From Acinetobacter bereziniae (GTDB lineage Bacteria; Pseudomonadota; Gammaproteobacteria; Pseudomonadales; Moraxellaceae): 44,811 nucleotides of DNA. Below are positions 5,201-33,014 of this stretch, piece by piece (the stretch's first letter is position 1; each line of letters begins with the position of its first letter). The notes under the pieces are model-generated. The model made no database searches, was not told where the DNA came from, and saw only the letters and a program-made list of their open reading frames with translations. Where the stretch lies: the NCBI GenBank assembly GCA_009912575.1, contig WNDP01000017.1:1-44811 (forward strand). The letters are read 5' to 3'. The translations under genes were made by a program, and so were the position numbers.

Positions 5201-5202
5201 TT

Positions 5203-6326: not shown

Positions 6327-6364
6327 TAAATTAGATGATATGAATTATACAAAGGCCTTAATAT

Positions 6365-14511: not shown

Positions 14512-17358
14512 ATGTCTAATAATATTTACGCTGCCTTGGAGCAGCTTGGCTTAACAGCACAAAAACGTGCGCTACATATTCAGTTCAGTAATAGCTTACT
14601 CAACGATCAAGTGTTCTTGCAACGTATTGATGGGACACATGTCATCAATGAGGGGCTTCAGCTTCAGCTCATCTGTCTCTCAACGTCAGCAATGATTCCA
14701 TTAAAAAGCTTTATTGGGAGTCAAGCGGCAATTGATATCGTCAACGATAAATCAGAACTCAATCGTATTTCAGGGATTGTGACCAAAGCTGATGTGGGCG
14801 CTAGTGATGGCTCACTCACGATTTATCGCCTCACAGTAGAAGACCCAACGGCACTGTGGAAATATCGTAGAAATTCGCGCGTGTTTATGGCGAAATCTGT
14901 TATTGATGTGGTTCAGTGTATTTTTTCCGAATGGACACAACGAAGCCCCTTGTTTGCTTCAAGTTTGACTTTAGATAAAAGTGGTTTAAGCAAAGACTAT
15001 GATGTACGCCCATTCATTATGCAGAATAATGAACTTGATAGCGAATTCATTCAAAGATTGCTATTTTCCGAAGGGATTAACACTTTAATTGATGAAGCCC
15101 AGTTTAAGGTTTCTAGTTTAAGTGAACCAATCCAACCACAAAAGTTACGTTTAATTGATGATAACACTCACTACCAAGCCCTTGATCGACGTAGCATCCG
15201 TTTTCATCAGAGTTCCGCTGTAGAGCTTACAGACAGCATAACAGCCTTTACTGGGTTGCGTTCCATTCAACCCACCGCAGTGCATATACAACGTTGGCAG
15301 GCTGATGCACTGGAAACAGAAGAGGGTGCAGGCTCAGTTTTAACTAAGCATCGACATTCAGACAATCAAGATTCAGCGAGTTTAGGTCTAGAACAGGCAT
15401 GGCACTTTAGCCCTGCATGGATACAAGACTTAAATGGTGAAGATGGTGCGACCAAATCAAGCAACAGTCAGATTGAACGGTTTAACCAAAACTTAAGCAA
15501 CTATTACGATTCCCAAGCCAAACAATTTACTGCAACATCGACAGTGCGTGATGCACAAGTGGGTTACTGGTTTGAGTTCAACGAACATCCTGAAATTGAT
15601 CAACACGATACTTCCGAAAAGCAGTTCTTGATTATATCTAAGACCTTCTATAATCAGAATAATTTACCGAAAGACCTGGCAGATCAAGTGACAGTGTTAC
15701 TCAAACAAAGCAACTGGCAACAGGCTGAAATTCGTACCAATAATCATGACGAACGCCAAGCAAATCATCTTGTTCTCCAACGGCGTAATATTGCAATTGT
15801 TCCAGAGTATGAGCCACTTCAACACCGACCGATTGCTTCCCCACAGCGTGCTAAGGTGGTGGGGCCAAGTGGAGAAGAAATTCATGTTGATGAATGGGGG
15901 CGTATAAAAGTTCGTTTCCTGTTTACCCGTAATGAAGACAACACCCATGATGGTGGTGCTGGTTCCAATGACAACGATACAGATTCAGCTTGGGTTGATG
16001 TTTTGACCCCGTGGGCAGGTGAAGGCTATGGTGCGCGATTCTTACCCCGTATTGGAGAAATTGTCGTCATAGACTTCTTTGATGGCAACCTTGACCGACC
16101 ATTTGTGGTGGGACGTATCCATGAAGCACAACGAAGTCCGACCAAGTTTGATGACAAAGGCAGTCTGCCTGATACCAAGAAATTGGCAGGAATCAAAAGT
16201 AAGGAATATCAAGGCAGTGGTTTCAATCAACTGAGGTTTGACGATACCCAAAACCAAATCAGCAGTCAACTACAAAGCAGTCATGGCGCGAGTCAACTCA
16301 ATTTAGGTAATCTCAGTCATCCTAAAGAAACTGACACCAGCGAAGGACGAGGTGAAGGCTTCGAATTGCGTACAGATCAGTGGGGAGCACTCAGAGCCAA
16401 ACAAGGCTTATTGCTTTCTACCTATTCACAAGACTCAGCAGGTGGCGATCATCTTGATGCCGCTGAAACAAAATCACAACTTGAATCGAGTTTGAATAAT
16501 TCAAAAGCTTTAAGTGAAGTTGCCAAGAATCAACAGACTGACCCTTTAGAAGTGCTAGATGGTCTAAAACAGTTTATTGAGCAAATCGAACAGGAAAGTG
16601 AAACTAAGGCAAAAGCATTTAAACAAGCTTTGATGATTTTGACTTCACCCGATTCAATCGCCCTTGCAAGTAATGAAGATGTACATCTTTCAGCAGATGG
16701 TCAAATTAGTCACAGTGCAGGCGATAGTATTAACCTAAGTACTCAAAAGAACTTGTTAGCTCATGCACAAAGTAAAATCAGTTTGTTTGCAGCACAGGAA
16801 GGTGCCAGATTCTATGCAGGTAAAGGCAAGGTTGAAATACAAGCTCAGGGAGATGGGGCTGATTTGATTGCACGTAAAGGGGTTCAAATCATTTCAACTG
16901 AAGATGCAATCTATATCACCAGTCCTAAAGAGATTAGATTAGTTGCAGACACCTCAGAATTAAAAATCAATGGCTCAGGTGTGTTTTCCACGACTGGGGG
17001 TTTGTTTGAGAGTAAGGCGGGGCAGCATAAGTTTGTGAGTGGGAGCAAAATTAGTACTCCTGCATTTACTTTACCTAAGTTAGAATTTGCACAACCACCC
17101 TTTTCAGGACAATACCAATTGTTTAAGGCAGATGGTCGAAACTTCAAAGGTTATAAATATTCAATACATGATAGTAAGGATAACCTATTAAAAGAGGGGG
17201 TTACAGATGAGCAAGGCTTTACGGAGCAAGTGATTACCCAAACTAAAGAGAAAATCATCGGCTACAAATCTGTGATGCGTGAAAGCGAACGAATTACAGA
17301 GGATTGGGAATCTAAATTAGAACAAATGTCGAAAAAAGTCCAAGGGGGGCAAAGTTAA
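14512..17358 (+). CDS. vgrG: T6SS spike protein VgrG with DUF2345 and C-terminal extension
   Basis: The 948-residue protein forms the trimeric needle tip that carries effectors through the type VI secretion tube. In order: gp27-like base (about 10-400), gp5 OB-fold (about 440-545, with EEIHVDEWGRIKVRFLF and ARFLPRIGEIVVIDFFDGN), Gln/Glu-rich spacer, DUF2345 beta-helix (about 690-850, repeated ISLSTQKNLL / GKGKVEIQAQGDGADLIARK). It ends with a tail of about 90 residues containing a small beta-domain (YKYSIHDSKDNLLKEGVTDEQGF) and a charged coiled end that probably loads cargo. The length is normal for Acinetobacter VgrG. The nuclease gene begins 1 bp after its stop, so the two are translationally coupled. 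Confidence 0.95.
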   Translation: MSNNIYAALEQLGLTAQKRALHIQFSNSLLNDQVFLQRIDGTHVINEGLQLQLICLSTSAMIPLKSFIGSQAAIDIVNDKSELNRISGIVTKADVGASDGSLTIYRLTVEDPTALWKYRRNSRVFMAKSVIDVVQCIFSEWTQRSPLFASSLTLDKSGLSKDYDVRPFIMQNNELDSEFIQRLLFSEGINTLIDEAQFKVSSLSEPIQPQKLRLIDDNTHYQALDRRSIRFHQSSAVELTDSITAFTGLRSIQPTAVHIQRWQADALETEEGAGSVLTKHRHSDNQDSASLGLEQAWHFSPAWIQDLNGEDGATKSSNSQIERFNQNLSNYYDSQAKQFTATSTVRDAQVGYWFEFNEHPEIDQHDTSEKQFLIISKTFYNQNNLPKDLADQVTVLLKQSNWQQAEIRTNNHDERQANHLVLQRRNIAIVPEYEPLQHRPIASPQRAKVVGPSGEEIHVDEWGRIKVRFLFTRNEDNTHDGGAGSNDNDTDSAWVDVLTPWAGEGYGARFLPRIGEIVVIDFFDGNLDRPFVVGRIHEAQRSPTKFDDKGSLPDTKKLAGIKSKEYQGSGFNQLRFDDTQNQISSQLQSSHGASQLNLGNLSHPKETDTSEGRGEGFELRTDQWGALRAKQGLLLSTYSQDSAGGDHLDAAETKSQLESSLNNSKALSEVAKNQQTDPLEVLDGLKQFIEQIEQESETKAKAFKQALMILTSPDSIALASNEDVHLSADGQISHSAGDSINLSTQKNLLAHAQSKISLFAAQEGARFYAGKGKVEIQAQGDGADLIARKGVQIISTEDAIYITSPKEIRLVADTSELKINGSGVFSTTGGLFESKAGQHKFVSGSKISTPAFTLPKLEFAQPPFSGQYQLFKADGRNFKGYKYSIHDSKDNLLKEGVTDEQGFTEQVITQTKEKIIGYKSVMRESERITEDWESKLEQMSKKVQGGQS

Positions 17359-17359
17359 C

Positions 17360-18361
17360 ATGGCTCTTCCAGTTGTCCTAGTTGTAATCGAAATAGCGGG
17401 TTATGCAATTGCAGCTTATGAAATTTATCGAGTTGCATCGAACACGTATGAAGAGGTAAAGAACTACCAAGATAGTATAAAAAAAGCTAAAGAAGAAATG
17501 AAGAAGCTCATGAAGAATCTTGGGCAGGAAATTTCAGATAAGATTGATAAGCAAAAAGAAAAAGTCCTGCTGACGACATTAACCACAGGCGACAAGCAAA
17601 CAGAAAGCACAAAAAAGGCAACAGGTAGGCCGCAACAAAAAAGTGCAGTGATTCAAGGAGCGATTAAACAGAAAATCCCATTTCGGCAGATTATTAGTCA
17701 AATCTGTGAAAAAGCTGAACAACTACCTATGATTCAGTTGAGGAAACAGAAGGGGCAAAAGCTAAAAGATGTTATTCCCAAAAGCAAAGTGGATGTTGTA
17801 GCCAAGTTATTAAAGATGACAGCAGAAGAGCTTGCCGGGGCAAATGTTGATGAATATGTGATTGTCCGATTAAAACAGCTTGCTACAAACTTTATGTTTG
17901 AGTTCATGGATGAATTGTTAAAATGGAAAAGTCCATTAAAGGCCGAAGTTTGTTTTGGGTATGATTTGAAAACCAGAAAATACTTAACCCCACAGCTTGC
18001 AGGGACAACACGTTTAAAGCGTTCAGGTTCTGAGATCAATCCATTTTGGCCGATGCCGTATAAAGGGAAAAATACTATAGGTGCGGATATCATTATTCCA
18101 GAATATCGTGGTGAGCCTTTAACCCTAACCAATATTTTTGCACTGGTGGAGATTAAGTTCCAAGGCGATCGGATTGATGAAAAGCAGTTTAATAACTATA
18201 ACGATTTAAAAAATCAATGTGCCCAAGCTAAGAAAGCCAGTAAGATTACTGCAAGTGAAGGTTTTAAGTTGTCTTTGTTTCGTTATCCTGAAGATGCAAG
18301 CCCAACAGAACATAAAGATTCAAAATCAACTACTCCAAGTAGAACACAGAAAACACGTTAG
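17360..18361 (+). CDS. T6SS nuclease effector with VRR-NUC/PD-(D/E)xK-like C-terminus
   Basis: The 333-residue product begins with a short hydrophobic segment (ALPVVLVVIEIAGYAIAAYE, residues 2-21) and a Lys/Glu-rich coiled coil (35-70). A central helical region follows, then a C-terminal domain with GADIII (Asp near residue 242) and LVEIKF (Glu264, Lys266) followed by QFNNYNDL. This D...E-x-K layout is that of VRR-NUC/PD-(D/E)xK endonucleases found in T6SS DNase effectors. The N-terminal hydrophobic helix may aid loading or membrane passage. Start 1 bp after vgrG and the following likely immunity gene support an effector role: DNA damage in the recipient cell. Activity is inferred. Confidence 0.8.
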   Translation: MALPVVLVVIEIAGYAIAAYEIYRVASNTYEEVKNYQDSIKKAKEEMKKLMKNLGQEISDKIDKQKEKVLLTTLTTGDKQTESTKKATGRPQQKSAVIQGAIKQKIPFRQIISQICEKAEQLPMIQLRKQKGQKLKDVIPKSKVDVVAKLLKMTAEELAGANVDEYVIVRLKQLATNFMFEFMDELLKWKSPLKAEVCFGYDLKTRKYLTPQLAGTTRLKRSGSEINPFWPMPYKGKNTIGADIIIPEYRGEPLTLTNIFALVEIKFQGDRIDEKQFNNYNDLKNQCAQAKKASKITASEGFKLSLFRYPEDASPTEHKDSKSTTPSRTQKTR

Positions 18362-18372
18362 GAATTTTACTC

Positions 18373-19647
18373 ATGAGTACATCTGACACTTTTTTAAGTG
18401 ATGAAGAGATTTTCGAATTAACAAGAGACATGCGCGAGAATACATCTATTATTTATGGTGAAGATGACCAAGAATTTGGTATTACACCTTACATTACTTT
18501 TTATGTTTACCATCAACAGGATGAAGTTGAAGATATTGCTAATCAAATTGTTGATCTTTATGAAGAGTTCGAAAGTAACATTATCGATAAACCTTTTAAA
18601 CTAAGGTATCGAGATACAGGCATATGGAAAAATGCGACTAAGTGGAAACCTTCACGACAGACAATGTTAGATGAAATGCTTGAGAGCTATAAAAAGTACT
18701 CTGTCTATTTTATAGCAGCTACAACAGGTGATTCTGCTATTCAAAGTGCACGTTGGGCTTTAGAAAGTAACATTAGGGATAACGGTCTAAGATATTCGAG
18801 TCTAAAGCTATCATTTGGTGAAAATTGGTATAAAGAGCATAAGCAACAATGGTATGATTTTGTTGAAAAATGCCTAGTTAAACTCAATCCGATTCAAGCT
18901 TATAGTGGCTATGAAATTGGCAACACGACACATTTCAATATCGTTCCACCTGAATTTGAGATTGTTGAACGAGTATTTAGTGATTACTTTTATGGTTTGG
19001 ATATTGATCATCCAAGTGAAATGAGTACTTCTCATGACTATCCTGATGGGTATATTCATTCATCTGCTTTATGCGCAGGACTTCGTACCCCGACATGGTG
19101 CTTCTTGCTTTCACCTTATTGGATTGAAAAACTAGGATTGACAGAAGAGCAAATTCGTTCAAAGCTCAATGATCCACGTATAGAAATTACCAAATTACCA
19201 GACCCCACGAATACTCATAAATTTAGTCTTTGGATACGTTTAGGTGATTTATCGCTTTATCCAGTTGAGGAAGGTGTCCCTGATTTATTGGTCATGGCAA
19301 ACGAGTTGATTAAACCAATTCGATGTAACGAATTAAAGCTAACCACTTTAGATGCATGGGATGATGACCCTAATCCTAGATTTGATATAGAAAGCTCACC
19401 ACAGTGGATTGCACGTTTTGATAAGGATAGTACATGGCCTGAAGGGAAACGTGTAAACCTAAAAAATAGTAATTCCAATGTGGATACGAAACTATCAATG
19501 AGGGCTGGTGAAAAATGCCCGCAATCAGGCTATTGGTTTACTGTTGCTCAAGAAAACTCACGTAGGTACTTTGAACAAGGTGAACTATTACCTGATATCA
19601 AAAGTGATTGGGGGAATGTTTACTGGCAGTTTGATGGTGATGAGTAA
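18373..19647 (+). CDS. type VI immunity family protein (DUF3396-like)
   Basis: The 424-residue cytosolic protein follows the nuclease effector by 11 bp. A central region (WFLLSPYWIEKLGLTEEQI, KLPDPTNTHKFSLWIRLGDL) resembles DUF3396 'type VI immunity' proteins. The C-terminus (KCPQSGYWFTVAQENSRRYF...WGNVYWQFD) is the Cys/Trp-rich tail often attached to these proteins. The expected role is neutralising the VRR-NUC-like effector in the producer. A 42-residue copy of the same tail occurs at 21012-21140, so a second related immunity gene once stood downstream. Confidence 0.7.
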   Translation: MSTSDTFLSDEEIFELTRDMRENTSIIYGEDDQEFGITPYITFYVYHQQDEVEDIANQIVDLYEEFESNIIDKPFKLRYRDTGIWKNATKWKPSRQTMLDEMLESYKKYSVYFIAATTGDSAIQSARWALESNIRDNGLRYSSLKLSFGENWYKEHKQQWYDFVEKCLVKLNPIQAYSGYEIGNTTHFNIVPPEFEIVERVFSDYFYGLDIDHPSEMSTSHDYPDGYIHSSALCAGLRTPTWCFLLSPYWIEKLGLTEEQIRSKLNDPRIEITKLPDPTNTHKFSLWIRLGDLSLYPVEEGVPDLLVMANELIKPIRCNELKLTTLDAWDDDPNPRFDIESSPQWIARFDKDSTWPEGKRVNLKNSNSNVDTKLSMRAGEKCPQSGYWFTVAQENSRRYFEQGELLPDIKSDWGNVYWQFDGDE

Positions 19648-19689: not shown

Positions 19690-20937
19690 ATGATGGATAT
19701 TACAGAATTTAAGTCATCCTTAACTGATAGAGAGTTGGATGGTATAGATTCGGAATATACTTACTCGACACTTGCATTGGTTAAGTTATTCAATGCCAGC
19801 GGCCCACACATGAATCGTTGGTGGGTAATGACCCCAGTGAACTGGTCTTGCCCGTGTTGTAAAAGGACTAAGGCAGAAATAGTAAGGTTAAATAAAAATA
19901 ATTATCTAACCTGTCAATTACATGAGCATCATGACCACATGAAAGATGTGGTTAAGGGACTTTTTGAAAAGTATTCGATTCAAAAAGATCACATTGTAGC
20001 TGATGAGCTTTCCGAAAAATTTGCTATCAAGGCTGCATTTTCTTTATCTGCTTATGACAATACTGTTGTTTGCTTTGATTGTAATAAAGCAGATGCTGAT
20101 GCCAAAAAAATAGTGAAAGCACACAAGTATTTTTCTTTTTCGCCACGTGAGATTGCAGAGTTTGTCAAACCTTCACCCAATCAAGAACATGAAATTGATC
20201 CATTGCTTGCTCAGCAAGTATGGGAAAGGGCTAAACCCATTTTTGAAATGAGAATGGAGTTTGCTGAAAGATTTGCAAAAATTGCTGCTGAAAATCAAGA
20301 TTGGTATCAACCTTCAGAAAGAACGGCTAAGCAAATTGAACGACTTGCTAAATGGCATTTTGAGCGCCATGGATTACATCAATTTGATAGATTTGAACCA
20401 GAGAGGTTACTTTATAATACAGTGCCATTTAAAGGTGCAAGTAGTTCATGGAGGTTTAAAGAGAACCCAATACTAAAAATGAAGCCTTCAAGCAATGAGC
20501 TTGCTCATCTTATCGCTACACGAGAGAAATATTGGACCAGATATGAAGATAGTTGGTTATGCCCTTGTTGCTCAAGGGATAAATATAATTGCGTGAGGCC
20601 ATCTAAGAAGAACTCTTGGATTTTTGAAGTTAAAACAGCTTCTCTATTCTCAGTCGAAGAGATGAACTTCCATTCCAATCCTGCCCCAATGTGTGTTGAC
20701 TGTGTAGATATGGCATTAAATTTTGGGAGGGAGGTATTGGAGTTAAGCGGAAAACGCTCAATGATAGAGTATCCAAGCTCAGTTATTAGTTTAGGGGAGC
20801 TAAGTGAAATAGTGATTGCTAGACCACACTCTCAGCACAAGTATAAAAATGATGCCATTGATCGTATCATTCCTAACATTGTACAAAGGATTATTCGGTT
20901 TTGTGATGGATTGGCAGACCGTCGTAATGATTGTTAG
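19690..20937 (+). CDS. HNH-like zinc-motif protein, possible second T6SS-associated nuclease
   Basis: The 415-residue protein lies 42 bp after the immunity gene. The N-terminal third has CPCCKR (about 55), CQLHEHHDHM (about 76) and VVCFDCNKADADAKK (about 128). This Cys2-His/Asp-Cys2-Asn order is what HNH nucleases show: zinc cysteine pairs framing a catalytic His-rich core with a later Asn. A second, weaker set occurs near residues 295-350 (WLCPCCSRDK, MCVDCVD) without a matching HHDH core, so an internal duplication has lost the presumed active site. FSFSPREIAEFV follows the first core. It could be an effector, a restriction-type nuclease, or a partner of the immunity protein. Nuclease activity is inferred from motif order alone. 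Confidence 0.55.
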   Translation: MMDITEFKSSLTDRELDGIDSEYTYSTLALVKLFNASGPHMNRWWVMTPVNWSCPCCKRTKAEIVRLNKNNYLTCQLHEHHDHMKDVVKGLFEKYSIQKDHIVADELSEKFAIKAAFSLSAYDNTVVCFDCNKADADAKKIVKAHKYFSFSPREIAEFVKPSPNQEHEIDPLLAQQVWERAKPIFEMRMEFAERFAKIAAENQDWYQPSERTAKQIERLAKWHFERHGLHQFDRFEPERLLYNTVPFKGASSSWRFKENPILKMKPSSNELAHLIATREKYWTRYEDSWLCPCCSRDKYNCVRPSKKNSWIFEVKTASLFSVEEMNFHSNPAPMCVDCVDMALNFGREVLELSGKRSMIEYPSSVISLGELSEIVIARPHSQHKYKNDAIDRIIPNIVQRIIRFCDGLADRRNDC

Positions 20938-21011
20938 AAATAGGGCACAGAAGATATAATACTGGTTATGATCCTAGGTAGGGTTATGGACAGTCGTATC
21001 TTCTAAGAATT

Positions 21012-21202: not shown

Positions 21203-22249
21203 ATGAGTATTATTGTGCGCATCCTCAAAGTGAATCATGGGGACTGTATCTTAGTCAGTTATGAGGAATCGTCGAGCGCTTTCAATATATTGATTGATGG
21301 TGGACCCTCGATGGCCTTTAAGCACGGCCCTAGACAGCGATATAAGGGAGCACTTTGCGAAGTTCTGGATGATCTGAAAGAAAAAGGTCAACATGTAGAT
21401 CTGGCTATCTTAACTCATATTGATGACGACCATATCAATGGACTGATCAAAGCTTTTGAAGATACTGAATATCTCCCTCAACTAGTTAAAACAATCTGGT
21501 TCAATTCATCTCGATTGATTACTCATCATTTCAAAGCCGCTGAGATTTCTGAGAATAATATTCTATTGGCCGATGGTTCTCCGCAAACAAGCGTGCAACA
21601 AGGCAAAGATCTTGAAGCTCTACTTGATGAAATCGGGTGTATAAGAGCACCACTTATCATTGAAAAGCAAGTCCATAACTTAGGCCCCTTTACTTTGACA
21701 GTATTATCACCAGGGCTTTCTCAACTTGAGAGACTCTTACATAAGTGGCCTACTGAAACAGATTCAGGTGCAACATCATCCCATAGTAATGATTATGATC
21801 TTTCACTAGAAGAGATATGGGGTGATGATCAATTTGATTCAGACCCTTCTATTTATAATGGTAGCTCAATTGCATTTATTTTAGAGGTCGAGGATAAAGC
21901 TATGCTTTTTCTTGGGGATGCACATGATCAAGTTGTTGCAGATAATCTGAGAGCACTAGGCTATAGTGATTGTAATAAAATTAAACTTGATCTCGTGAAG
22001 ATTTCACATCATGGAAGCCAATATAACACAAGCAATGAGACTCTTTCACTTCTAGATTCAACATGTTACGTAATTTCTACTGATGGTTCAAAACATGGCC
22101 TTCCAAATAAAAGAACGATTGCGAGAATCCTTAAATCTACAAATGGGAAAATTCTTTTCAATTATGAAAAGGTTATTTCAAAATTACAGTTACCAGAAAA
22201 AGTTACAGCTTCTCGAGTAGAGGTGCTTGATAGTGAGATCAGACTATGA
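21203..22249 (+). CDS. MBL-fold hydrolase, effector subunit of Lamassu/ABC-3C-type defence operon
   Basis: The 348-residue product is a ComEC-like metallo-beta-lactamase-fold enzyme. The metal motif LTHIDDDHINGL is near residue 70, with later ligands LGDAHDQ (about 235) and ISHHGSQYN (about 267). MBL enzymes of this group hydrolyse phosphodiesters or related substrates with two metal ions. A strong ribosome site (AGGGAG) sits 8 bp before ATG. It is the first of four overlapping genes (protease, middle component, SMC-like ATPase). In Lamassu-family systems the SMC complex senses foreign DNA and releases an effector; a hydrolase plus protease pair is one described effector combination. All metal-ligand motifs look intact. 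Substrate unknown. Confidence 0.85.
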   Translation: MSIIVRILKVNHGDCILVSYEESSSAFNILIDGGPSMAFKHGPRQRYKGALCEVLDDLKEKGQHVDLAILTHIDDDHINGLIKAFEDTEYLPQLVKTIWFNSSRLITHHFKAAEISENNILLADGSPQTSVQQGKDLEALLDEIGCIRAPLIIEKQVHNLGPFTLTVLSPGLSQLERLLHKWPTETDSGATSSHSNDYDLSLEEIWGDDQFDSDPSIYNGSSIAFILEVEDKAMLFLGDAHDQVVADNLRALGYSDCNKIKLDLVKISHHGSQYNTSNETLSLLDSTCYVISTDGSKHGLPNKRTIARILKSTNGKILFNYEKVISKLQLPEKVTASRVEVLDSEIRL

Positions 22250-23541
22250 CTGTTTCTGAAATCATGCAGTCTTACTGTATCAGGGTTAATGGGGGAAGTG
22301 GTGTTCTCGTCAATGCTATGACACAGAAGTACTCTTATGTATTAACAGCAGCTCATGTGCTCGATGGTATTACTGCTCATGAAGTTTTGGATTATCAAGG
22401 AAATCCTGTTGAGATTCTAGAAATACTTAGACATTCTGCCCCTTTCGATTTGACAACATTATCTAACGACTATGTGATTTTGAAAGTTAGTTTTCAGGCC
22501 TATGTAGCACAAAAAATATTTAATGCTGAGGAGTTACAGCATAGTGCTGGCTTAACCTTTGTCGGATATCCACAGGGGGAAAGGGCTAGTCAAACCCCGA
22601 TAAAAGTTTATGATGGGCATATAACAAATGTGAATGATGATCTTATTTTTTTCACAATTAATGGTATGCCAAGTAAGTCTGAAATCGAAGGAATGTCTGG
22701 TGGAGGTATGTATTTCCACAAAGATGGGCAGGTGTTTCTTACGGGTGTTGAATTCAGAATGGATGCAAGTGATGAAAAGCACCAATATAGTCGAGTACAA
22801 TGCCATAGCTTACAGAAGTTTTATGAAATAATAGAAATAAATAAAAGTGCACCAATGATTCCTGCTCATTTGGAATGCTTTTCTAGCATACGGGAGATGA
22901 TATTCGCATTCAATGTGATTGATCAAAACAACATATATCATCTTAAAGCAGCATTAGATAGATTTGCCGATTCGCTAATTGCGAGCGGAATGCCTCCACC
23001 TTATGAAGTAATGACGCAATATAATTTACAACTACTTGTTGATTCCACGCGACCTGATGAACTCAAAACTCAAGAATTATGGACAGCTTATTTAGAGTTT
23101 TTAGTAATTTGCGCTTTGATGGATAATATTGGAGTTACAAATGTTGAATATATAAAAAGTATAGAGCGAAAGCGCAGGTTGTTATATACTAGTGACGGCA
23201 CGAATTGGATTAGTCGCTTGGATGAGCTGCTTAAAATTGCACGTAAACTTTTAGACAAAGATGGCACGCTTATTGTTGCATCACCCGATGCTGCAGCAAA
23301 ACACCTACCTCCAAGTTTTGTGCTTGATAGAGTGATAACTAATATTGCTGTTGTACCAAACCAAGGACCATTTTCCATTGATGCGGTTGAAAGCTCTATT
23401 TATACGAGTTTCAAACTAACGCATCTGGAAGGGCTTCGCAAGATCTGTGTGATTGATAGCGAATTTGAATATAAAGGTCTGCCATCTGGAATGGCACAAT
23501 TACAGTTGCTTAAGGACAAACTTAATGAAATTATTAAGTGA
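22246..23541 (+). CDS. trypsin-like protease fused to ABC-3C effector-type C-terminal domain
   Basis: The ATG overlaps the hydrolase stop by 4 bp. The 431-residue protein has an N-terminal chymotrypsin-fold domain (1-195). The catalytic His is in TAAHVLD (about 37), Asp probably lies in SNDYVILKV (about 78), and Ser is in GMSGGGMYF (about 150). It has no signal peptide, so it should act in the cytosol. A helical C-terminal half (about 215-431) with no catalytic motifs probably docks to the middle component and ATPase. As a defence effector it would cleave host or phage proteins once unleashed. The triad is complete, so the enzyme is likely active. Confidence 0.85.
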   Translation: MTVSEIMQSYCIRVNGGSGVLVNAMTQKYSYVLTAAHVLDGITAHEVLDYQGNPVEILEILRHSAPFDLTTLSNDYVILKVSFQAYVAQKIFNAEELQHSAGLTFVGYPQGERASQTPIKVYDGHITNVNDDLIFFTINGMPSKSEIEGMSGGGMYFHKDGQVFLTGVEFRMDASDEKHQYSRVQCHSLQKFYEIIEINKSAPMIPAHLECFSSIREMIFAFNVIDQNNIYHLKAALDRFADSLIASGMPPPYEVMTQYNLQLLVDSTRPDELKTQELWTAYLEFLVICALMDNIGVTNVEYIKSIERKRRLLYTSDGTNWISRLDELLKIARKLLDKDGTLIVASPDAAAKHLPPSFVLDRVITNIAVVPNQGPFSIDAVESSIYTSFKLTHLEGLRKICVIDSEFEYKGLPSGMAQLQLLKDKLNEIIK

Positions 23542-24055
23542 GGAAGTCGATCTAGGTTTCTTATCTGCTCAGTATGAGAACATCAGGTTCTATATGTTTC
23601 GCTCGGATGATCCTCTTTCGTTCATCTCTTGCATAACTTGTATATGTGAAACGTCAGCTGAAGTAGTAGAAAATTGGCAAGCTATCCAAAATATTATTTC
23701 TGTTCACCATCAGCCTGTAGGCAGTTTGGCAGCGTGGAATGTGTATTTGGTTTTTGTCACAGTTGAGCAAGTTCCTTTAAGGGAAAAATATGAAATCGAA
23801 AATAATAAGTTTGCTGCTCGTAAGATCATAATTGATGGGCTTCTAGAAATACCAAGTCTTGAACAATTGGCTATTGAACTACAAAACCAGTTATTAGGTT
23901 CAGATTTAACGCTTGATACTCGAGTCAATGACCCAAAAGAGGCTTTGCTATCTTTAGAAAGGTATGTTCGTGGTGCACCATTAGATTCAAAAACTGAGTC
24001 TAGAGAAAAGCGTTCACAGATGATCAATAACATAATGGAATTTCTGAAAAAATAA
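23525..24055 (+). CDS. middle component (LmuC-like) of the ABC-3C/Lamassu operon
   Basis: I chose ATG at 23525, which overlaps the protease end by 17 bp and gives 176 residues; a more upstream start would lie deep in the protease gene. The pattern WNVYLVFVT followed by REKYEIENNKFAARKIII resembles the small middle-component proteins encoded before SMC-like ATPases in three-component systems, which bridge effector and ATPase. There are no membrane segments. Its stop overlaps the ATPase start (TAATG). Assignment rests on the short pattern and on gene order. Confidence 0.7.
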   Translation: MKLLSEEVDLGFLSAQYENIRFYMFRSDDPLSFISCITCICETSAEVVENWQAIQNIISVHHQPVGSLAAWNVYLVFVTVEQVPLREKYEIENNKFAARKIIIDGLLEIPSLEQLAIELQNQLLGSDLTLDTRVNDPKEALLSLERYVRGAPLDSKTESREKRSQMINNIMEFLKK

Positions 24056-26286
24056 TGAAAATTAAAAAAGTTGAGATTGAGGCATTTCGTGCTTACAAAT
24101 CAAAGTCAGAAGGAACTTTTGATTTTACGAATGAAGGCGATAATCCTTCAAACTTTATTGCGATCTATGCGCCAAATGGTTTTGGTAAAAGCTCGTTTTA
24201 CGATGCGGTTGAATGGGCTGTCACCAACCATTTGGAAAGGCTTGCAGGGGAATATAATAAATCTAACTTTGAAAGGGCGGCTAAGTCTACTAAGGATCCT
24301 AATGAGGGTCAAAAAATCCTACGTAATAAATACGTCGATAATCAAGTGATTACAAAGGTCTCGGTATTCACAACGAGGCCGACCCCTTTTGAGAATGAAC
24401 TACCGAAACTTCGTGCGAATGGGCGGGACTTAAGTTTTGGCGATAAGAGTCAACGGAGAAATGAGTTTTTTCGACGCGTCGTTTTGAGCCAGGATGAGAT
24501 TGATAGATTTCTCAGAGAAGCAAGGCCTCAAGAGCGATATGCTAAATTTATGGAAAGCTTTGGTGGTGATACTGAGATAGCTCGCAAGGAGTTGTCAGCG
24601 CTTATCAGTGATAATAATGCAGAGCTGAGTGTTCTTAATAAGCAACGCGAGTCGCTTATCGAAGAGTTGAAAGAACCAATTAATCTTTCTGTATTCGAGC
24701 GTTTCAATTCAGTTGCGGCTGAACTTAATGCGGTGGGTGAGAATATTGTATTACCTGATGAAAAATTTTCATCTCAGAGCGAATATAAACTTAACGCTAG
24801 CCTTGTATCGCGACAGCATGAACTGAACACGTTGCTCAACGCGAAAACCAAAATATCAGAAGTGCTTGCAGATAGGTTGACGAAAATACCTGAAATAGAG
24901 CGCCATGTTAACTATCAGGTTGAGCAAAAAACTCAACTTTCTAGGCTATTGAAAGGGGTTGCCGATGCCGACAAGTATCAGATGCTATTCGAGTCATACA
25001 ACAAATGTGTGGAGGATCAAAAACAAGCACATGTGCGTCTGACTCACCTTATTGAAATCGCTGAGAACACAGAGACATTTTTAATAACTGAATCACGCCT
25101 TCTCGAATTATCAACAATCCAAAAGGCACTGACCGAAGAGCGCTCAAACAGCACTATCAACCTAGCAAGTTTTGAGCAGCAATTAGCTGAAATTAACAGC
25201 GAGCTTAATATTGCTGACGATAGAGCTTTGCTATTAAGAAATTCTGTCGACAATGCTGGATCAGTTTATGTCTCACTTTCGAACCACCGTGCTCAGATTG
25301 GTATCCTAAGGCAACAAATCACTGCTAAAGAAACTACTATTCAGATAGACAAGATCCAGTTAGATGAATTTAATCGTGAGTTAAGAGAGGTCTCCACATT
25401 AAACATTACATCCAATTTATTATTAACTGGAAATGTAGGTGTTTTACTTTTTGATCAAGATAAAATTAAACAATTGACAAGATGTCAAGCTGACCTTGAT
25501 TTAATCGAAGTGCATAATCAGGCTCTCTCTGCTACTCAGAAAGCCTTAACTGAACAGATGGAACAGCACGAGCAGTTGATTGCCATAGGCTTAGATTATC
25601 TTGTTATACAGCCTTCTAATATTTGTCCTTTATGTACAACTCATCATTCATCTGCAGAGGCTTTGCTAGATAAGGCTAAGAGCCAAAATCTAGTGTCTGA
25701 ATTGAGTTTAGAAAATTCCAGAAAGCTTTCACTCTCATTCATGCGTCAAAAAGAACTCAGAGAAGCAATACAGGCGATTACTCGGCAAGCAGTTGAAGCA
25801 CAGGTTCAGCAGCTCGGTATTCTACATAAAAAGCTCGCTGAAGTTAGCGAGAGACATGCTCGAGCAGTGTTTGAGAAATCTACTTTGGAGGCAGAATACA
25901 ATACCTTAGAAGTTGAAATAATTGAACTGGAAAAGTTAGTTTTGGGGCTTTCAAATGATGAACTAGTGTCTCGAGTAGAGGGAGAGCTTAGCCAACTTAC
26001 GACAAAACGCTTGAATCTGCTTGCACGGCAAGCGGAATTGTCTACTCAAATTCAATCAGTAACTACGTGGATCAATTCTAAAGATTCTGAGTTGTATGCA
26101 TTAACTTCTGAAAGTGAGAGAAAAAGTAGCGAATATGTCTATGTTAGAGTAAAGACGTATCTAAATGAAAATGCTATTGCTGCCTCAGACCTCAAAAAGC
26201 ATTGTGAGGTGAAGAAAAACGAGATTGACGCGGAAGTACTCAAATATAAAGTTGCTAGTGAAGCTTTTCCTGTTTTTGCTGGATAG
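24055..26286 (+). pseudogene. SMC-like/ABC ATPase (LmuB-like), truncated at the C-terminus
   Basis: The 743 residues hold the N-terminal ATPase lobe with Walker A (APNGFGKSSFYDAVEW, P-loop 42-47) and a Q-loop region (LSQDEIDRFL, about 145). Long coiled coils (about 190-510 and 550-700) flank a zinc-hook-like turn NICPLCTTHH (about 523). Everything expected after the returning coil is missing: the LSGGQ-type signature, Walker B and H-loop, some 250-300 residues. The frame ends in a chance stop (AFPVFAG) exactly where minus-strand integrase sequence begins. The defect should abolish ATP hydrolysis, so the operon is probably inactive unless a C-terminal half is supplied in trans; a fragment of that kind occurs at 11980-12882. 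Confidence 0.85.
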
Positions 26287-26566
26287 GATCAATCCCATTT
26301 CGGATTTGAGCTTTCATTTCTTGAGCTTTTGTTCTTGCTTCAGCTAGAGATACCTCAGGGTATGAGCCTAAACCAATATCACGTCGATGGACTCGTTGTT
26401 TACCATCTTCATCAAAACGTTGACCTACAACCACACGTAAAATCCAAGCACGAGAGTCATTCACAATACGCAGGTGTAAGCCATCGACACCGCCTACAGC
26501 GTGCCTACCATTTTCTTTGATTTTTGCTACACTGAGTGCAGAGAGTTCTTTTGCTTTCTTAGGCAT
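26255..26566 (-). pseudogene. N-terminal fragment of a tyrosine integrase (P4/DUF4102 type)
   Basis: Read leftwards from ATG at 26566, the product MPKKAKELSALSVAKIKENG continues through GGVDGLHLRIV, WILRVVVG, RRDIGLGSYPEVSLAEARTK and NGIDPIQQ. This is the arm-binding domain of P4-like integrases. The core-binding and catalytic domains are missing: coding similarity stops near 26262-26280, where the 3' end of the truncated ATPase begins. It is non-functional but shows that an integrative island once ended here. The island would have extended leftwards, over the defence genes. Confidence 0.8.
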
Positions 26567-26704
26567 AGGCTTTTTTCTGTCCCACATAATAACCCACATA
26601 GAATATTGGAAATAGTCGGATTAGACAAGATGGGGTTGGAAAGGTTTTTATTTAAGTTATTGAAAGATAAGTTTATAATGGATTAGTTTGGACTGCATAA
26701 TACA

Positions 26705-26731
26705 GGTGTTATACGGACACCGCTTCCGCCA
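26705..26731 (+). other. tRNA-3'-end-like structure, possible attachment-site remnant
   Basis: GGTGT-TATACGG-ACACC forms a 5-bp stem with a 7-nt loop, followed by GCTTCCG and CCA: the geometry of a T-arm plus acceptor strand plus CCA. The loop lacks the canonical TTCRA, and no complete tRNA is upstream. Location beside an integrase remnant and just before a terminator suggests an old att site, but the match could be fortuitous. Confidence 0.25.
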
Positions 26732-26737
26732 AATATC

Positions 26738-27664: not shown

Positions 27665-29596
27665 TTATCTGATACACTTACTTTGTAAATCTTCATCAAG
27701 GCTTTTAAAGAAATCAACAAGTTCAGTCAATTTGAAATTGCCTAAATCTACGCCATTTTGTGCACGTAAGCGTATCGATGAAGATTGCTTTTCATGCTCA
27801 CCGATAATAATGAGATAAGGTATTTTCTGTAACGTATTTTCACGGATTTTAAAGTTTAATTTCGAAGGTTTTAAATCTAAGCTTGTCCTAAAACCAAATT
27901 TTCTAAGCAATTGTTGAATGTGTTGTGCATAATCATGTTCTGCAAGTGTAATGGGCAAAATCGCAATTTGGATTGGAGCGAGCCAGAATGGGAAATGCCC
28001 CACATAATGTTCAATCAAAATGCCAATAAAACGCTCCAAAGATCCAAATAAAGCACGATGTAACATCACTGGTCTTTGTTTATGATTATTTTCATCGATG
28101 TAGTGAATATCAAAACGTTCTGGTAAATTTAGATCCACTTGAATCGTACCGCATTGCCATTCTCGACCAATGGCATCTTTCAAGGTGAATTCGAGTTTAG
28201 GGCCGTAAAATGCACCTTCACCGACATTTAGGTAATAGGCAATATCAAGTTGTTCAAGCGATTGTTTAAGAGTATCCTCTAAAAAATCCCAAATTTCTTC
28301 TGTACCAACTCGATGTTCAGGTCGTGTAGATAATTTAATCGAAATTTCATTGAAACCAAATTGCTGATAAATTCTATAAATCAGTGCAATCGTTTGTTTG
28401 CACTCTGATAAAAGTTGATTTTCACTACAAAAAATATGTGCATCGTCTTGGGTAAAATGGCGAACACGCATCAGCCCATGCAAAGAACCTGATGGCTCAT
28501 AACGATGAACCTTTCCGAACTCGGCCATGCGTAAGGGTAGGTCACGATAACTTCTTAACTCATGATCATATAGACAAACAGCTCCGGGGCAACTCATCGG
28601 CTTGAGTGCATAATTACGTTGATCTTCAGTTACCGTTGTAAACATATGTTGCTGATAGTTTTGCCAATGTCCTGAAATTTCCCACAGTTCACGTTCCATG
28701 ACATCTGGTGTATTGACTTCGATATAACCCGCTTCTTCTTGTTGTTGGCGTAAATATTCAGTTAATAACTGAAATAGTTTCCAACCTTTGGCATGCCAAA
28801 ATACTGCACCAGGTGCTTTATCATCGAAATTAAGCAAATCAAGCTGTTGTGCCAATTTACGATGGTCACGTTTTGCTGCTTCCTGAATCTGATGTAAATG
28901 ATTTTTTAATTGTTTTGAGTTCATCCAACATGTCACATAGACCCGTTGTAACATCGGTTGTGAAGAATCTGCTTGCCAATATGCGCCAGAAGCATGGGTC
29001 ACTTTAAAATGTTCTAAGCAACCCGTGTTTGGTACAAGTGGGTATAAGTAGAAATCAGCAAAATGGTGCTGTTGGGAAAAAAATAATACATTTGAGTTAT
29101 GCTTATTTTTTAATACTTGCTGTTTAAAATCGAATCCCTGCTGTTTAAAAAAATCAGCAACTTGATCGACAGTCTGATTTATTGTGTGAAGATCAAGATG
29201 CTGTTGAACGGATTCATGCATTTTGAGTTCGATTTTTTGTAAGTCTTCTTGATTGAAATGTGGTGTATCCGCAAAGTCATAATAAATACCTTGATCTGTA
29301 ATTTGATACTCAACTGGTTGAGCAGCAGGAAATAATTGATGGATTGCCTGCGCCAATAAATAAGCATAGGAATGTCGAAGTAAGTTTAAATTGTGGTCAT
29401 CATTCAAACTAAAAAGTTCGATGACACAGTCTTGCTGTATGAGGTGCTGTAAACTTACATAGTGTTGCCCAACTTTTGCGAGAAATACTTTTTTATAACT
29501 CTGAATTTTAAAACGTGACAAAATCTCAGAAATTGCTAAAGGTTGTTCAACTTTAAAATATTGAGTTGAGCCTTGAAAATTAATTTGGATATTCAT
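27665..29596 (-). CDS. thrS: threonyl-tRNA synthetase paralogue, editing site degenerate
   Basis: The 643-residue class II synthetase charges tRNA-Thr. Order: TGS domain (1-62), editing domain (about 63-225), catalytic core (about 240-535, with MSCPG, RMAEFG, EPSGSLHGLMRVRHFTQDD), anticodon-binding domain (about 540-643). The zinc ligands of the active site are all present (Cys336, His387, His513), so it still needs zinc. In the editing domain the usual HxxxH reads H75-SYA-Y79, and the CRGPH motif reads YLYPL (Tyr183 and Leu187 for Cys and His), so three of four editing residues are gone. It is the last gene of a Zur-type operon, 36 bp after the dihydroorotase gene. Likely a zinc-starvation back-up copy (thrS2). 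Confidence 0.9.
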   Translation of the reverse strand: MNIQINFQGSTQYFKVEQPLAISEILSRFKIQSYKKVFLAKVGQHYVSLQHLIQQDCVIELFSLNDDHNLNLLRHSYAYLLAQAIHQLFPAAQPVEYQITDQGIYYDFADTPHFNQEDLQKIELKMHESVQQHLDLHTINQTVDQVADFFKQQGFDFKQQVLKNKHNSNVLFFSQQHHFADFYLYPLVPNTGCLEHFKVTHASGAYWQADSSQPMLQRVYVTCWMNSKQLKNHLHQIQEAAKRDHRKLAQQLDLLNFDDKAPGAVFWHAKGWKLFQLLTEYLRQQQEEAGYIEVNTPDVMERELWEISGHWQNYQQHMFTTVTEDQRNYALKPMSCPGAVCLYDHELRSYRDLPLRMAEFGKVHRYEPSGSLHGLMRVRHFTQDDAHIFCSENQLLSECKQTIALIYRIYQQFGFNEISIKLSTRPEHRVGTEEIWDFLEDTLKQSLEQLDIAYYLNVGEGAFYGPKLEFTLKDAIGREWQCGTIQVDLNLPERFDIHYIDENNHKQRPVMLHRALFGSLERFIGILIEHYVGHFPFWLAPIQIAILPITLAEHDYAQHIQQLLRKFGFRTSLDLKPSKLNFKIRENTLQKIPYLIIIGEHEKQSSSIRLRAQNGVDLGNFKLTELVDFFKSLDEDLQSKCIR

Positions 29597-29632
29597 GTGT
29601 GGTCGTCAAAATACGGATAGAACTGTTGAAGA

Positions 29633-30997
29633 TTAACGGTCAATTTCTAAGGCTTGACCTTGGCAGTTGAGATAAGGTTGCTGTTGATGCCAAGCGAGTT
29701 GACCTGAAATAATGGTTGTATCAATCAAATAACGAAAAGTTTTATTTTGAAAAGGTGTCCAACCACAACGCATATAATTGGTTTGTTCAGCTACCGATTG
29801 ATTTTGATTATTTTCCCGAATAAGTACCAGATCTGCCCAATAGCCTTCACGGATATAGCCTCGATCTTTAAGGCGGAACAGATCAGCAACCTGATGTGAT
29901 GTTTTGCGTACCAAGGTCTCAATAGATAATTGTTGATTCGCAACTAATTCCATTAATGCAGGTAATGCATGCTGAACTAAGGGTAGACCAGAAGGTGCGT
30001 TAAAATAAGATTGCTGTTTTTCTTGCCATGTGTGTGGTGCATGGTCTGTACCGATAATATCTAAACGTTGGTTGTTGGCGACAGCTTCGATCAATGCCTG
30101 TTTATCGTTGGCTGTTTTAATGGCAGGATTACATTTAATCAAATGACCTAAACTTGCATAGTCAGCATCATCAAAACTCAAGTGATGTATACATACTTCA
30201 GCCGTAATATATTTTTTGTCTAAAGGTAAGTTTTTAAATAGACAAAGTTCTTTCGCAGTTGAAATATGTAGGACATGTAACTGTGTTCCAAATTTTTCAG
30301 CGAGTGATACAGCCAATCGAGAACTTTCAAAGCAGGCATCTTTGTCACGAATTTTAGGGTGCAAATTGGCTGGAATTTCTTCACCATATTGATCACGATA
30401 AAATGCTTCAAGTTGCTTAATACGGGGTGTTGATTCGCAATGGGTCAATAAAATCGTCGGAACATTTGCAAAAAGGCGCTCTAATATGCGTGGATCATCA
30501 ACCAACATATTACCTGTTGATGCGCCCATAAACACCTTAACTCCACTGATCAAACGAGGGTCAAGAGACTCTACAATATCTAGAATATCTAGATTTTCTG
30601 CACTCACGCCAAAGTGAAAGGCATAATTTGTCATACTATGCTGTGCAGCAATCCCTTTTTTATAATGAAGTGCAGCGAGATCTAATGTAGGTGGACGAGT
30701 ATTCGGCATGTCCATGATGCTGGTAATTCCACCGATTGCTGCTGCCAAAGACTCGGATGCAAACCCACCTTTTTCAGGAGAGCCGGGATCACGAAAATGC
30801 ACTTGATCATCAATCATCCCTGGAATTAACCATGCGCCATCTGCTTCAATGTTCTTTGCGTTGTAGACGCCTGAAATACTCGGCTGAATTTTACTGATAC
30901 GTCCTTGTTGAATGAGAACATCACAAACTTGTTGTCGCTGTTCATTTACGATGTTTGCTTGACGTATGATCAGATCAGGGAGTTGTCTAAAATTCAT
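29633..30997 (-). CDS. pyrC: dihydroorotase paralogue (PyrC-like cyclic amidohydrolase)
   Basis: The 454-residue amidohydrolase would catalyse ring closure of carbamoyl-aspartate to dihydroorotate in pyrimidine synthesis. Visible motifs: DDQVHFRDPG (62-72), GITSIMDMPNT (90-100), Lys154 in VKVFMGAS (normally carbamylated), His186 (LTHCES), His244, GTDHAPH (Asp318). The first His of the usual HxH metal pair is Gln65, a variant also seen in Bacteroidetes-type dihydroorotases. This may alter binding of one of the two metals. It overlaps the upstream gamma-carbonic anhydrase gene by 11 bp. Inferred role: substitute enzyme during zinc limitation. Confidence 0.85.
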   Translation of the reverse strand: MNFRQLPDLIIRQANIVNEQRQQVCDVLIQQGRISKIQPSISGVYNAKNIEADGAWLIPGMIDDQVHFRDPGSPEKGGFASESLAAAIGGITSIMDMPNTRPPTLDLAALHYKKGIAAQHSMTNYAFHFGVSAENLDILDIVESLDPRLISGVKVFMGASTGNMLVDDPRILERLFANVPTILLTHCESTPRIKQLEAFYRDQYGEEIPANLHPKIRDKDACFESSRLAVSLAEKFGTQLHVLHISTAKELCLFKNLPLDKKYITAEVCIHHLSFDDADYASLGHLIKCNPAIKTANDKQALIEAVANNQRLDIIGTDHAPHTWQEKQQSYFNAPSGLPLVQHALPALMELVANQQLSIETLVRKTSHQVADLFRLKDRGYIREGYWADLVLIRENNQNQSVAEQTNYMRCGWTPFQNKTFRYLIDTTIISGQLAWHQQQPYLNCQGQALEIDR

Positions 30998-31547
30998 TTT
31001 TTAATGCCTTATATCCCTGAACCAGTTCAATATTGGTTGTAACCACACTTTCTGAAAATTCACTGATAGAAATATCAATGGGTGGATACTGGCTTAAATC
31101 CGTTTTAGCATTGATATAACTCATGGCTGGTACATAAAAGAATTCAGGTAAATCTCGACCATCAACAACAGCATTATGTCGCACAGCACTGTGATCACCG
31201 ACTTTACAGTTAAATAAAACACTGTTAAATCCGACAAATACATGATCACCAATCACACAAGGACCATGAATAATAGAACGGTGTGCGATAGAGGAATTTT
31301 TTCCGATTTTAACCTGAGCACCTGCTTTAGAATGAATGACCACACCATCTTGTATGTTTGAATTTTCACCAATAATGATGGCTTCCATTTCTCCTTGTTC
31401 ATTAACTTCATCTGCACGAATAACTGCATAAGGGCCGACAAAAACATTGGCTTCAATAATGACTTTGCCACATATAATTGCGGTTTGATCGATATAAGCA
31501 GATTGCTCAATGACAGGAAGATGTCCTGTTGGGTTTTTTCGAATCAT
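30987..31547 (-). CDS. gamma-carbonic anhydrase-like hexapeptide-repeat protein
   Basis: I place the start at 31547 (MIRKNPTGHL), 11 bp after the hisI stop; the longer frame to 31637 would overlap hisI by 79 bp. The 186-residue product is a left-handed beta-helix of hexapeptide repeats. The three metal-binding histidines of gamma-CAs are at His72 (VVIHSK), His89 and His94 (IAHRSIIHGP). Gamma-CAs can use iron or cobalt as well as zinc, which suits a zinc-limitation operon. The likely reaction is CO2 hydration; an acyltransferase-like role is less likely because the triad is intact. Confidence 0.85.
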   Translation of the reverse strand: MIRKNPTGHLPVIEQSAYIDQTAIICGKVIIEANVFVGPYAVIRADEVNEQGEMEAIIIGENSNIQDGVVIHSKAGAQVKIGKNSSIAHRSIIHGPCVIGDHVFVGFNSVLFNCKVGDHSAVRHNAVVDGRDLPEFFYVPAMSYINAKTDLSQYPPIDISISEFSESVVTTNIELVQGYKALKNEF

Positions 31548-31558
31548 GTGAAAGTCTT

Positions 31559-32895: not shown

Positions 32896-32910
32896 GAAGA
32901 TAAGAATACA

Positions 32911-32940
32911 TTAGATGTTATGTTATAACATAACATCTAA
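32911..32940. promoter_or_regulatory. perfect 30-bp Zur-type operator
   Basis: TTAGATGTTATGTTA (32911-32925) is followed directly by its exact reverse complement (32926-32940). The core TGTTATAACA-type symmetry matches gammaproteobacterial Zur boxes. It lies 16 bp upstream of the folE2 start, overlapping where its promoter should be. Binding by Zur is inferred; the Fur-family paralogue next door is an alternative binder. Confidence 0.85.
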
Positions 32941-33014
32941 TAAAATTTGTTTCTAGTAAAGCTTTTGAGAAAAGTTGAGCCGATCGCTTTAAAAATTAGT
33001 GGGGCATACTAAAT

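What the first reader, a model, noticed from the sequence alone, without database searches (positions are those of the whole stretch)
21203..26286. Lamassu/ABC-3C-like operon with paired MBL-hydrolase and trypsin-like protease effectors
Four overlapping genes (4-, 17- and 1-bp overlaps) encode an MBL-fold hydrolase with THIDDDH, a protease with a full His-Asp-Ser set and a separate C-terminal docking-like domain, a middle component, and an SMC-like ATPase with a CPLC zinc hook. The order matches the described Lamassu hydrolase-protease type. What is unusual is a double-effector operon in which both enzymes appear intact while the sensor ATPase is cut. Unrestrained effectors should be toxic, so either they need activation by the ATPase, or the system is dead, or the ATPase is completed in trans.
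Basis: partly seen in the sequence, partly recalled or inferred. Interest (0 to 1): 0.75.

Follow-up and report, generated by a model that had tools for sequence, protein, structure and literature searches.

The report
Phage-defence operon with broken sensor
This is a known kind of bacterial anti-phage operon (Lamassu, nuclease-protease type) whose sensor gene was cut short by a deletion running into a neighbouring integrase gene, so it is most likely a dead copy whose two enzymes stay switched off.

Summary
The four overlapping genes are a Lamassu hydrolase-protease operon (PADLOC LmuA, LmuA, LmuC, LmuB; E 9.9e-46 to 2.4e-174). Metal ligands, protease triad, Walker A and zinc hook are present. 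The ATPase stops at 743 aa; seven Acinetobacter relatives have 1037-1046 aa and the C-lobe. A deletion, about 2.4 kb against relative G142, joined lmuB to the inside of a convergent tyrosine-integrase gene; both lost their 3' ends. The C-lobe was not found elsewhere in the genome.

Here two isoleucines, Ile115 and Ile205, are invariant in 16 of 16 near proteins, but they flank the two low-confidence loops instead of lying in them. Intact effectors beside a broken sensor recur in Pseudomonas and Chryseobacterium; a sensor without effectors occurs on an A. ursingii plasmid.

Verdict: most likely an ordinary, recently decayed copy of a known system. Completion in trans is not supported.

The parts
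21203..22249 (+). MBL-fold pro-nuclease (LmuA, hydrolase type), 348 aa, intact
   Evidence: PADLOC PDLC03854 LmuA 6.5e-124; Pfam Lactamase_B; metal-ligand positions invariant 37 of 37; AlphaFold mean pLDDT 86.9, best PDB fold match by E-value the ComEC beta-lactamase domain 9ic4
21545..21547 (+). Ile115, candidate protease cut site, 10 residues before the low-confidence loop 125-133
   Evidence: Ile in 16 of 16 proteins at >=54% identity (window included), 2 of 21 more distant ones; lies in a confidently modelled short helix, not in the loop; role inferred from PMC12799240
21815..21817 (+). Ile205, candidate protease cut site, 12 residues after the low-confidence loop 187-193
   Evidence: Ile in 16 of 16 near proteins, 2 of 21 distant ones; lies in a confidently modelled short helix; role inferred
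22246..23541 (+). Trypsin-like protease fused to CTD4 docking domain (LmuA, protease type), 431 aa, intact
   Evidence: PADLOC PDLC03855 LmuA 8.2e-129; Pfam Trypsin_2 2.1e-08 and CTD4 1.8e-55; H37/D75/S151 invariant 8 of 8
23525..24055 (+). LmuC, middle component (MComp1), 176 aa, intact
   Evidence: PADLOC PDLC03873 9.9e-46; Pfam MComp1 4.5e-10; start from comparison with relatives
24055..26286 (+). lmuB fragment: N-lobe (Walker A), coiled coil, zinc hook CPLC, part of the returning coil; C-lobe missing; the last few codons come from integrase DNA
   Evidence: PADLOC PDLC03865 2.4e-174, profile 1-714 of 1007; relatives 1037-1046 aa with C-lobe motifs; homology ends at 26262 in the closest relatives
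26259..26262 (.). Deletion junction, apparent 4-bp overlap (TGAA) between lmuB-like and integrase-like DNA
   Evidence: lmuB matches of G019, G052 and G142 end at 26262; integrase matches of the closest relatives begin at 26259 (some others at 26252-26267); 2443 bp lie between the two matched ends in G142
26255..26599 (-). 5' quarter of a tyrosine integrase gene (arm-binding domain only; core-binding and catalytic domains missing)
   Evidence: Pfam Arm-DNA-bind_3 2.9e-19; 94% identical to a 422-aa integrase ORF in G059; full domain set in the G142 relative
26718..26734 (+). Island attachment repeat: 3' end of tRNA-Ser(UGA), CACCGCTTCCGCCAAAT, without the rest of the tRNA
   Evidence: same sequence beside related integrases; L033 (G052) carries this repeat and an intact tRNA-Ser(tga) ending in the same sequence

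Best explanation
The locus is a decayed copy of a Lamassu hydrolase-protease operon, next to a convergent tyrosine integrase of an island type that uses tRNA-Ser(UGA). In an intact copy (inferred from Lamassu, Hachiman and AVAST work) the SMC-like LmuB with LmuC senses phage or plasmid DNA. It then lets the protease-CTD4 protein oligomerise. The active protease cuts the gating loops of the MBL pro-nuclease, possibly at Ile115 and Ile205, and the freed nuclease destroys DNA and kills or stalls the cell. Here a deletion removed the LmuB C-lobe and the integrase core together (shown by comparison with relatives). Without signature, Walker B and switch motifs LmuB cannot form an ATPase head, so no signal is made (inferred). 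The protease most likely stays unassembled and the nuclease gated, so the intact effectors do no harm (inferred). The loss looks recent (inferred from open frames and low dN/dS).
For: Family assignment of all four genes. The same four genes with full-length LmuB in seven other Acinetobacter species and full LmuB in 25 of 31 LmuB-bearing loci of a wider scan (six of those loci are the same Acinetobacter contigs). lmuB and integrase homology meet near 26259-26262, and G142 has both genes complete and convergent. LmuB C-lobe not found in the 5.16-Mb assembly. Active sites present. Two low-confidence segments in the MBL model and two isoleucines constant in near homologues. Best solved fold by E-value is the ComEC nuclease domain, the kind of homologue used in PMC12799240. 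Protease without its partner domain not toxic in Hachiman. Two other loci keep both effectors with a broken LmuB.
Against: No experiment on this operon or, in what I read, on any Lamassu nuclease-protease pair; the pro-enzyme mechanism was shown in Hachiman and AVAST and proposed for Lamassu. A review passage says activated LmuA is liberated and forms a tetramer, so losing LmuB could instead free the protease to self-assemble. The Hachiman pair system was toxic on expression and its nuclease alone nicked plasmid. Ile115 and Ile205 lie in confidently modelled helices, not inside the low-confidence segments, which hold no isoleucine; they are mostly absent in distant members (2 of 21 each), and an Avs1a alignment gave no clear counterpart. 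dN/dS is low, 0.13-0.42 across window-relative pairs, with many dS values near or above 1, so decay is not visible beyond the one deletion. The junction rests on one draft assembly.
Confidence: 0.8

Rival explanations
1. The effectors are held off by LmuC and the LmuB stump, and the stump with the remaining proteins still works as a reduced sensor, so the shortened operon is functional.
For: 743 codons open, no stop in any of the four genes, low dN/dS; zinc hook and Walker A kept. A review passage reports a study in which severely truncated DdmABC variants of Vibrio were said to keep anti-phage activity; the reviewer urges caution.
Against: All C-lobe motifs are missing; an ABC/SMC ATPase head needs both lobes (established knowledge). 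Another review says LmuB ATP binding and LmuA activity are essential wherever tested. A recent deletion explains the open frames equally well.
Confidence: 0.06
2. The ATPase is completed in trans by a separately encoded C-lobe.
Against: Search of the assembly with a relative's last 316 residues: best E 0.059. LmuB and the protease occur once each.
Confidence: 0.02
3. The junction is an assembly error and the real genome has a complete lmuB.
For: Draft of 335 contigs; intact relatives exist.
Against: The join shares only about 4 bp, not the long repeat that usually causes misassembly. No orphan C-lobe lies on another contig; the only integrase pieces elsewhere at over 70% identity are 43- and 31-residue 3' scraps.
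Confidence: 0.08
4. Loss of LmuB releases the protease, which self-assembles and activates the nuclease; the strain survives only because the operon is silent.
For: Activated LmuA is described as liberated and tetrameric (passage). Expression is unknown: promoter-like matches are 29 against 22.2 (sd 5.0) in shuffles.
Against: Protease without its partner domain was not toxic in Hachiman. Intact effectors beside broken sensors occur in three genera. One 10-of-12 promoter-like match lies upstream of the operon at 20931-20960, so silence is not indicated.
Confidence: 0.12

Closest known systems
Lamassu, subtype Hydrolase_Protease (DefenseFinder-style name seen in PMC12447246; PADLOC LmuA/LmuA/LmuC/LmuB)
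   Same: all four genes and order; overlaps similar in relatives
   Different: LmuB lacks its C-lobe here
ABC-three-component (ABC-3C) systems
   Same: CTD4 docking domain, MComp1, Rad50-like ATPase with zinc hook
   Different: ATPase head incomplete
Nuclease-protease pairs of Hachiman (HamM/HamA) and AVAST (Avs1a/Avs1b), PMC12799240
   Same: [quoted passage not shown] two low-confidence segments in the model; two isoleucines constant in near homologues
   Different: core is Lamassu; the isoleucines flank the loops here; cleavage not shown for this type in what I read
DdmABC / Cap4-type Lamassu of Vibrio cholerae (review passages, PMC12409362)
   Same: effector, small middle protein and SMC-like protein
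   Different: effector is a Cap4 nuclease, not a protease plus pro-nuclease

Membership tests
Lamassu Hydrolase_Protease | MBL-fold LmuA gene first in the operon | tested here: met
   PDLC03854 6.5e-124
Lamassu Hydrolase_Protease | trypsin-like protease with C-terminal docking domain | tested here: met
   PDLC03855 8.2e-129; Trypsin_2 and CTD4
Lamassu Hydrolase_Protease | LmuC middle component | tested here: met
   PDLC03873 9.9e-46; MComp1
Lamassu Hydrolase_Protease | complete SMC-like LmuB with both ATPase lobes | tested here: not met
   profile 1-714 of 1007; C-lobe of relatives absent and not found elsewhere in the assembly. So it is a decayed copy by descent, not a working member
Lamassu Hydrolase_Protease | anti-phage activity | not testable with these tools
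   needs plaque assay
Gated nuclease-protease pair | nuclease gene directly upstream of a protease fused to a core defence protein | tested here: met
   4-bp overlap, same strand, protease fused to CTD4
Gated nuclease-protease pair | two disordered insertions near the MBL active site, each with a conserved cleavage isoleucine | tested here: inconclusive
   two segments with pLDDT<50 (125-133, 187-193) without any isoleucine; I115 and I205 flank them, invariant in 16 of 16 near but 2 of 21 distant proteins each. Distance of the loops from the active site was not measured
Gated nuclease-protease pair | proteolytic activation of the nuclease | not testable with these tools
   needs biochemistry
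ABC-3C | CTD + middle component + ABC ATPase | tested here: inconclusive
   CTD4, MComp1 and AAA_23 above Pfam cut-offs, but only the N-lobe half of the ATPase is present

The most novel reading that the evidence does not exclude
The orphan nuclease-protease pair, with LmuC and the headless LmuB stump, has been kept as a stripped-down system: the stump holds the protease until some cell stress frees it, making a sensor that needs no ATPase cycle. Two independent cases (here and Chryseobacterium balustinum) in which lmuB runs into a convergent, truncated tyrosine recombinase would then mark a selected route of change rather than decay.
Probability: 0.04. Interest if true: 0.6.

Novelty: new member of a known kind. 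Interest (0 to 1): 0.27.

Why it matters
It is a natural sensor-loss case of a nuclease-protease Lamassu. That such copies keep both enzymes intact fits the view that the pair is locked by two steps (gated nuclease, unassembled protease) rather than restrained by the sensor. Comparison also gives a testable, though weak, prediction of cut sites (Ile115 and Ile205) for a subtype that, in the papers I could read, was only inferred to use proteolytic activation.

Tried and rejected
Completion in trans: rejected. A second copy of lmuB or the protease gene in the genome: none. Phage origin: no match to the protease in 50,697 phage records; viral contigs gave 1 weak relative from 131 candidate stretches (not examined further). 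Solved structures by sequence: nothing for LmuB at E 0.001 and only four chance-level hits with a full-length LmuB from G019; the protease profile gave seven hits between E 0.025 and 1, one of them a HamA-type chain. A class-wide search with the protease-type LmuA profile found 18 other genomes of 369, each matching at most 206 of 425 positions; those loci were not opened. Relaxed selection on the lmuB stump: window against G142, G019 and G052 gave 0.26, 0.27 and 0.28, against 0.20-0.23 among those three; too small a difference to claim. Alignment with one Avs1a protein placed no unambiguous counterpart of Ile115 or Ile205. Mosaicism was measured but not pursued. The Lamassu structure papers (Li et al. 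2025, Haudiquet et al. 2025) and the ABC-3C paper (looked up by an identifier recalled from memory) were not held, so their content comes only from passages in other papers.

Full report
What is there. Four overlapping plus-strand genes at 21203-26286 were confirmed. PADLOC names them LmuA (hydrolase, 6.5e-124), LmuA (protease, 8.2e-129), LmuC (9.9e-46) and LmuB (2.4e-174). Pfam gives Lactamase_B; Trypsin_2 plus CTD4 of ABC-3C systems; MComp1; and AAA_23. Overlaps are 4, 17 and 1 bp. MBL ligand positions are invariant in 37 of 37 aligned proteins. H37/D75/S151 of the protease are invariant in 8 of 8, as are Walker A and the CPLC hook of LmuB.

How the ATPase was cut. LmuB has 743 aa; seven relatives in the genus have 1037-1046 aa from the shared start (one search lists some with an upstream start). 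All seven carry a C-terminal stretch with YFSxAQ, IDDPIQxMDS and IISTHD, the expected signature, Walker B and switch motifs (motif names recalled), which the window lacks. Homology to lmuB of G019, G052 and G142 ends at 26262; homology to the closest integrase genes begins at 26259, while some others begin between 26252 and 26267. The four shared bases are TGAA. The integrase remnant is the arm-binding domain only. In G142 the two genes are complete and convergent (L029), and 2443 bp lie between the two matched ends. So one deletion most simply removed the 3' parts of both. Of 18 integrase loci fetched (L010-L015, L017-L028), 16 carry the tRNA-Ser(UGA) 3' end beside the integrase. The window has that repeat at 26718-26734 and no tRNA in the contig; L033 has the repeat and an intact tRNA-Ser. 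The island's left end was not found.

Trans completion. The last 316 residues of G142 LmuB have no match better than E 0.059 in the 5.16-Mb assembly. LmuB and the protease occur once each. A close integrase 3' scrap of 43 residues lies on contig C37 and one of 31 residues on C274; neither contig gave a match to the LmuB C-lobe.

Relatives. Among 176 Acinetobacter species, 8 have LmuB at E 1e-10 or better, and the same 8 have the full-length LmuA-protease (two further partial matches lie in frames of 1924 and 1725 aa, one of them in a ninth species). LmuB is complete in 7 of 8; only the window's is cut. A pattern-based scan of a collection of 84,980 species found 38 loci; it favours near relatives, and six loci (L050-L054, L065) are the same contigs as the Acinetobacter relatives. 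Of the 38, 31 have a LmuB match. Of the 31, LmuB is complete (at least 90% of the profile in one frame) in 25, runs to or within 41 bases of a contig end in 3 (L060, L061, L064), and is broken inside in 3 (L057, L071, L076). The 7 of 38 without LmuB are L063, L079, L081, L082, L084, L085 and L087; they were not pursued. L058 counts as complete although its frame stops at profile position 997 of 1044, and L062 lacks the MBL gene because the contig ends there. Both effectors are uninterrupted in 2 of the 3 broken cases. In L057 (Pseudomonas cedrina) lmuB is split by a small internal deletion seen against L056. In L076 (Chryseobacterium balustinum) only 64 residues match, followed by an antisense, also truncated, tyrosine recombinase. 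In L071 the MBL gene is split as well. The reverse also occurs: L066 (Rahnella) has a split protease with full LmuB, and a plasmid of A. ursingii keeps LmuC and full LmuB but only the end of CTD4. L061 has a split protease and LmuB at a contig end. Decay therefore hits either half, and effectors without an intact sensor are tolerated at least at native expression. Complete four-gene operons also sit on conjugative plasmids of Providencia rettgeri and Enterobacter cloacae (conjugative as typed there, genes as annotated, the latter as hypothetical proteins).

Why the effectors need not be toxic. Of PMC12799240 I read the abstract and Results and saw passages of its discussion, legends and references. 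It reports that the MBL enzyme is a gated pro-nuclease, opened by the partner protease at isoleucines in two insertions. In Hachiman, removing the core domain from the protease gave no toxicity, while forced dimerisation did. It shows this in Hachiman and AVAST and extends it to Lamassu as a model. The same paper notes toxicity on expression of the whole Hachiman system and plasmid nicking by the nuclease alone. For the window's MBL, AlphaFold gave mean pLDDT 86.9 with two segments below 50 (125-133 and 187-193). Ile115 and Ile205 are isoleucine in 16 of 16 proteins at 54% identity or more, window included, but in only 2 of 21 distant ones each. Against a simple match to the paper, both lie in confidently modelled short helices 10-12 residues outside those segments, which contain no isoleucine. 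Ile120, nearer loop 1, is isoleucine in 12 of 16 and valine in 4. I did not measure the distance of the loops from the active site. The best solved fold by E-value is the ComEC nuclease domain, 9ic4. Review passages (PMC12409362) say that activated LmuA is liberated and becomes a tetramer, which leaves room for spontaneous release when LmuB is lost, and mention a study claiming that severely truncated DdmABC variants kept activity, with the reviewer's caution. Both points are kept under the rivals.

Age and history. No gene of the operon has an internal stop; dN/dS in window-relative pairs is 0.13-0.42 over the four genes, with many dS values near or above 1. The lmuB stump is not clearly relaxed. 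The operon is a mosaic: protease residues 51-200 are 34-50% identical to G142 but 82-84% to G155, while residues 201-431 and LmuC are 81-96% identical to G142. LmuB is closest to G019 and G052 (87% against 84% for G142).

Closest known kinds. The subtype name Lamassu-Hydrolase_Protease was seen in a passage of PMC12447246. Of PMC10586767 I read section 8 and passages; of PMC8565338 passages only. In the listings of eight library searches I saw no bench study of a nuclease-protease Lamassu and none of sensor-less copies. Some listings were capped (20 of 1,380; 20 of 71) and the library holds only open-licence papers. By descent the locus is a Lamassu operon. As a working system it fails the test of a complete LmuB.

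Verdict. Interest is modest: a natural sensor-loss case and a tentative cut-site prediction.

Noticed in passing
L076:7912-8748 (Chryseobacterium balustinum): A second, independent lmuB running into a convergent and also truncated tyrosine recombinase, with both effector genes intact.
   Followed up: partly
L088:5990-8342 (A. ursingii plasmid NZ_CP089040.1): Mirror image of the finding: LmuC and full LmuB kept, MBL gene and protease domain gone, only the end of CTD4 left.
   Followed up: partly
window 22246-23541: Domain-level mosaic: the protease domain is closest to G155, CTD4 and LmuC to G142; the break lies near the domain boundary around residue 200.
   Followed up: partly
window 26718-26734: Attachment repeat of an island type at tRNA-Ser(UGA), found beside 16 of 18 related Acinetobacter integrases fetched; a similar site with one mismatch is at G000:C136:1580.
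   Followed up: partly
L066:11805-16520 (Rahnella ecdela): A convergent integrase of the same kind sits directly after lmuB, as in G142 and the window; the protease gene there is split.
   Followed up: no
window 27665-33431 (-): Threonyl-tRNA synthetase-like, amidohydrolase, hexapeptide protein, PRA-CH, FolE2 and a Fur-family gene in a row; looks like a zinc-starvation (Zur) paralogue cluster (regulon recalled).
   Followed up: no
window 14512-19647: VgrG gene followed by a 333-aa protein with a sub-threshold VRR-NUC match and a TsiV/TaeI-like immunity gene: looks like a type VI secretion effector module beside the defence operon.
   Followed up: no
window 164-8573 and 34472-38051: DUF637 haemagglutinin-like protein and pre-toxin (PT-VENN, PT-TG) pieces on the left; ShlB/FhaC transporter and a filamentous haemagglutinin repeat match on the right.
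   Followed up: no
window 11277-12882: Gp3-like recombination directionality factor gene overlapping a 326-aa ORF with a sub-threshold SMC_N match.
   Followed up: no
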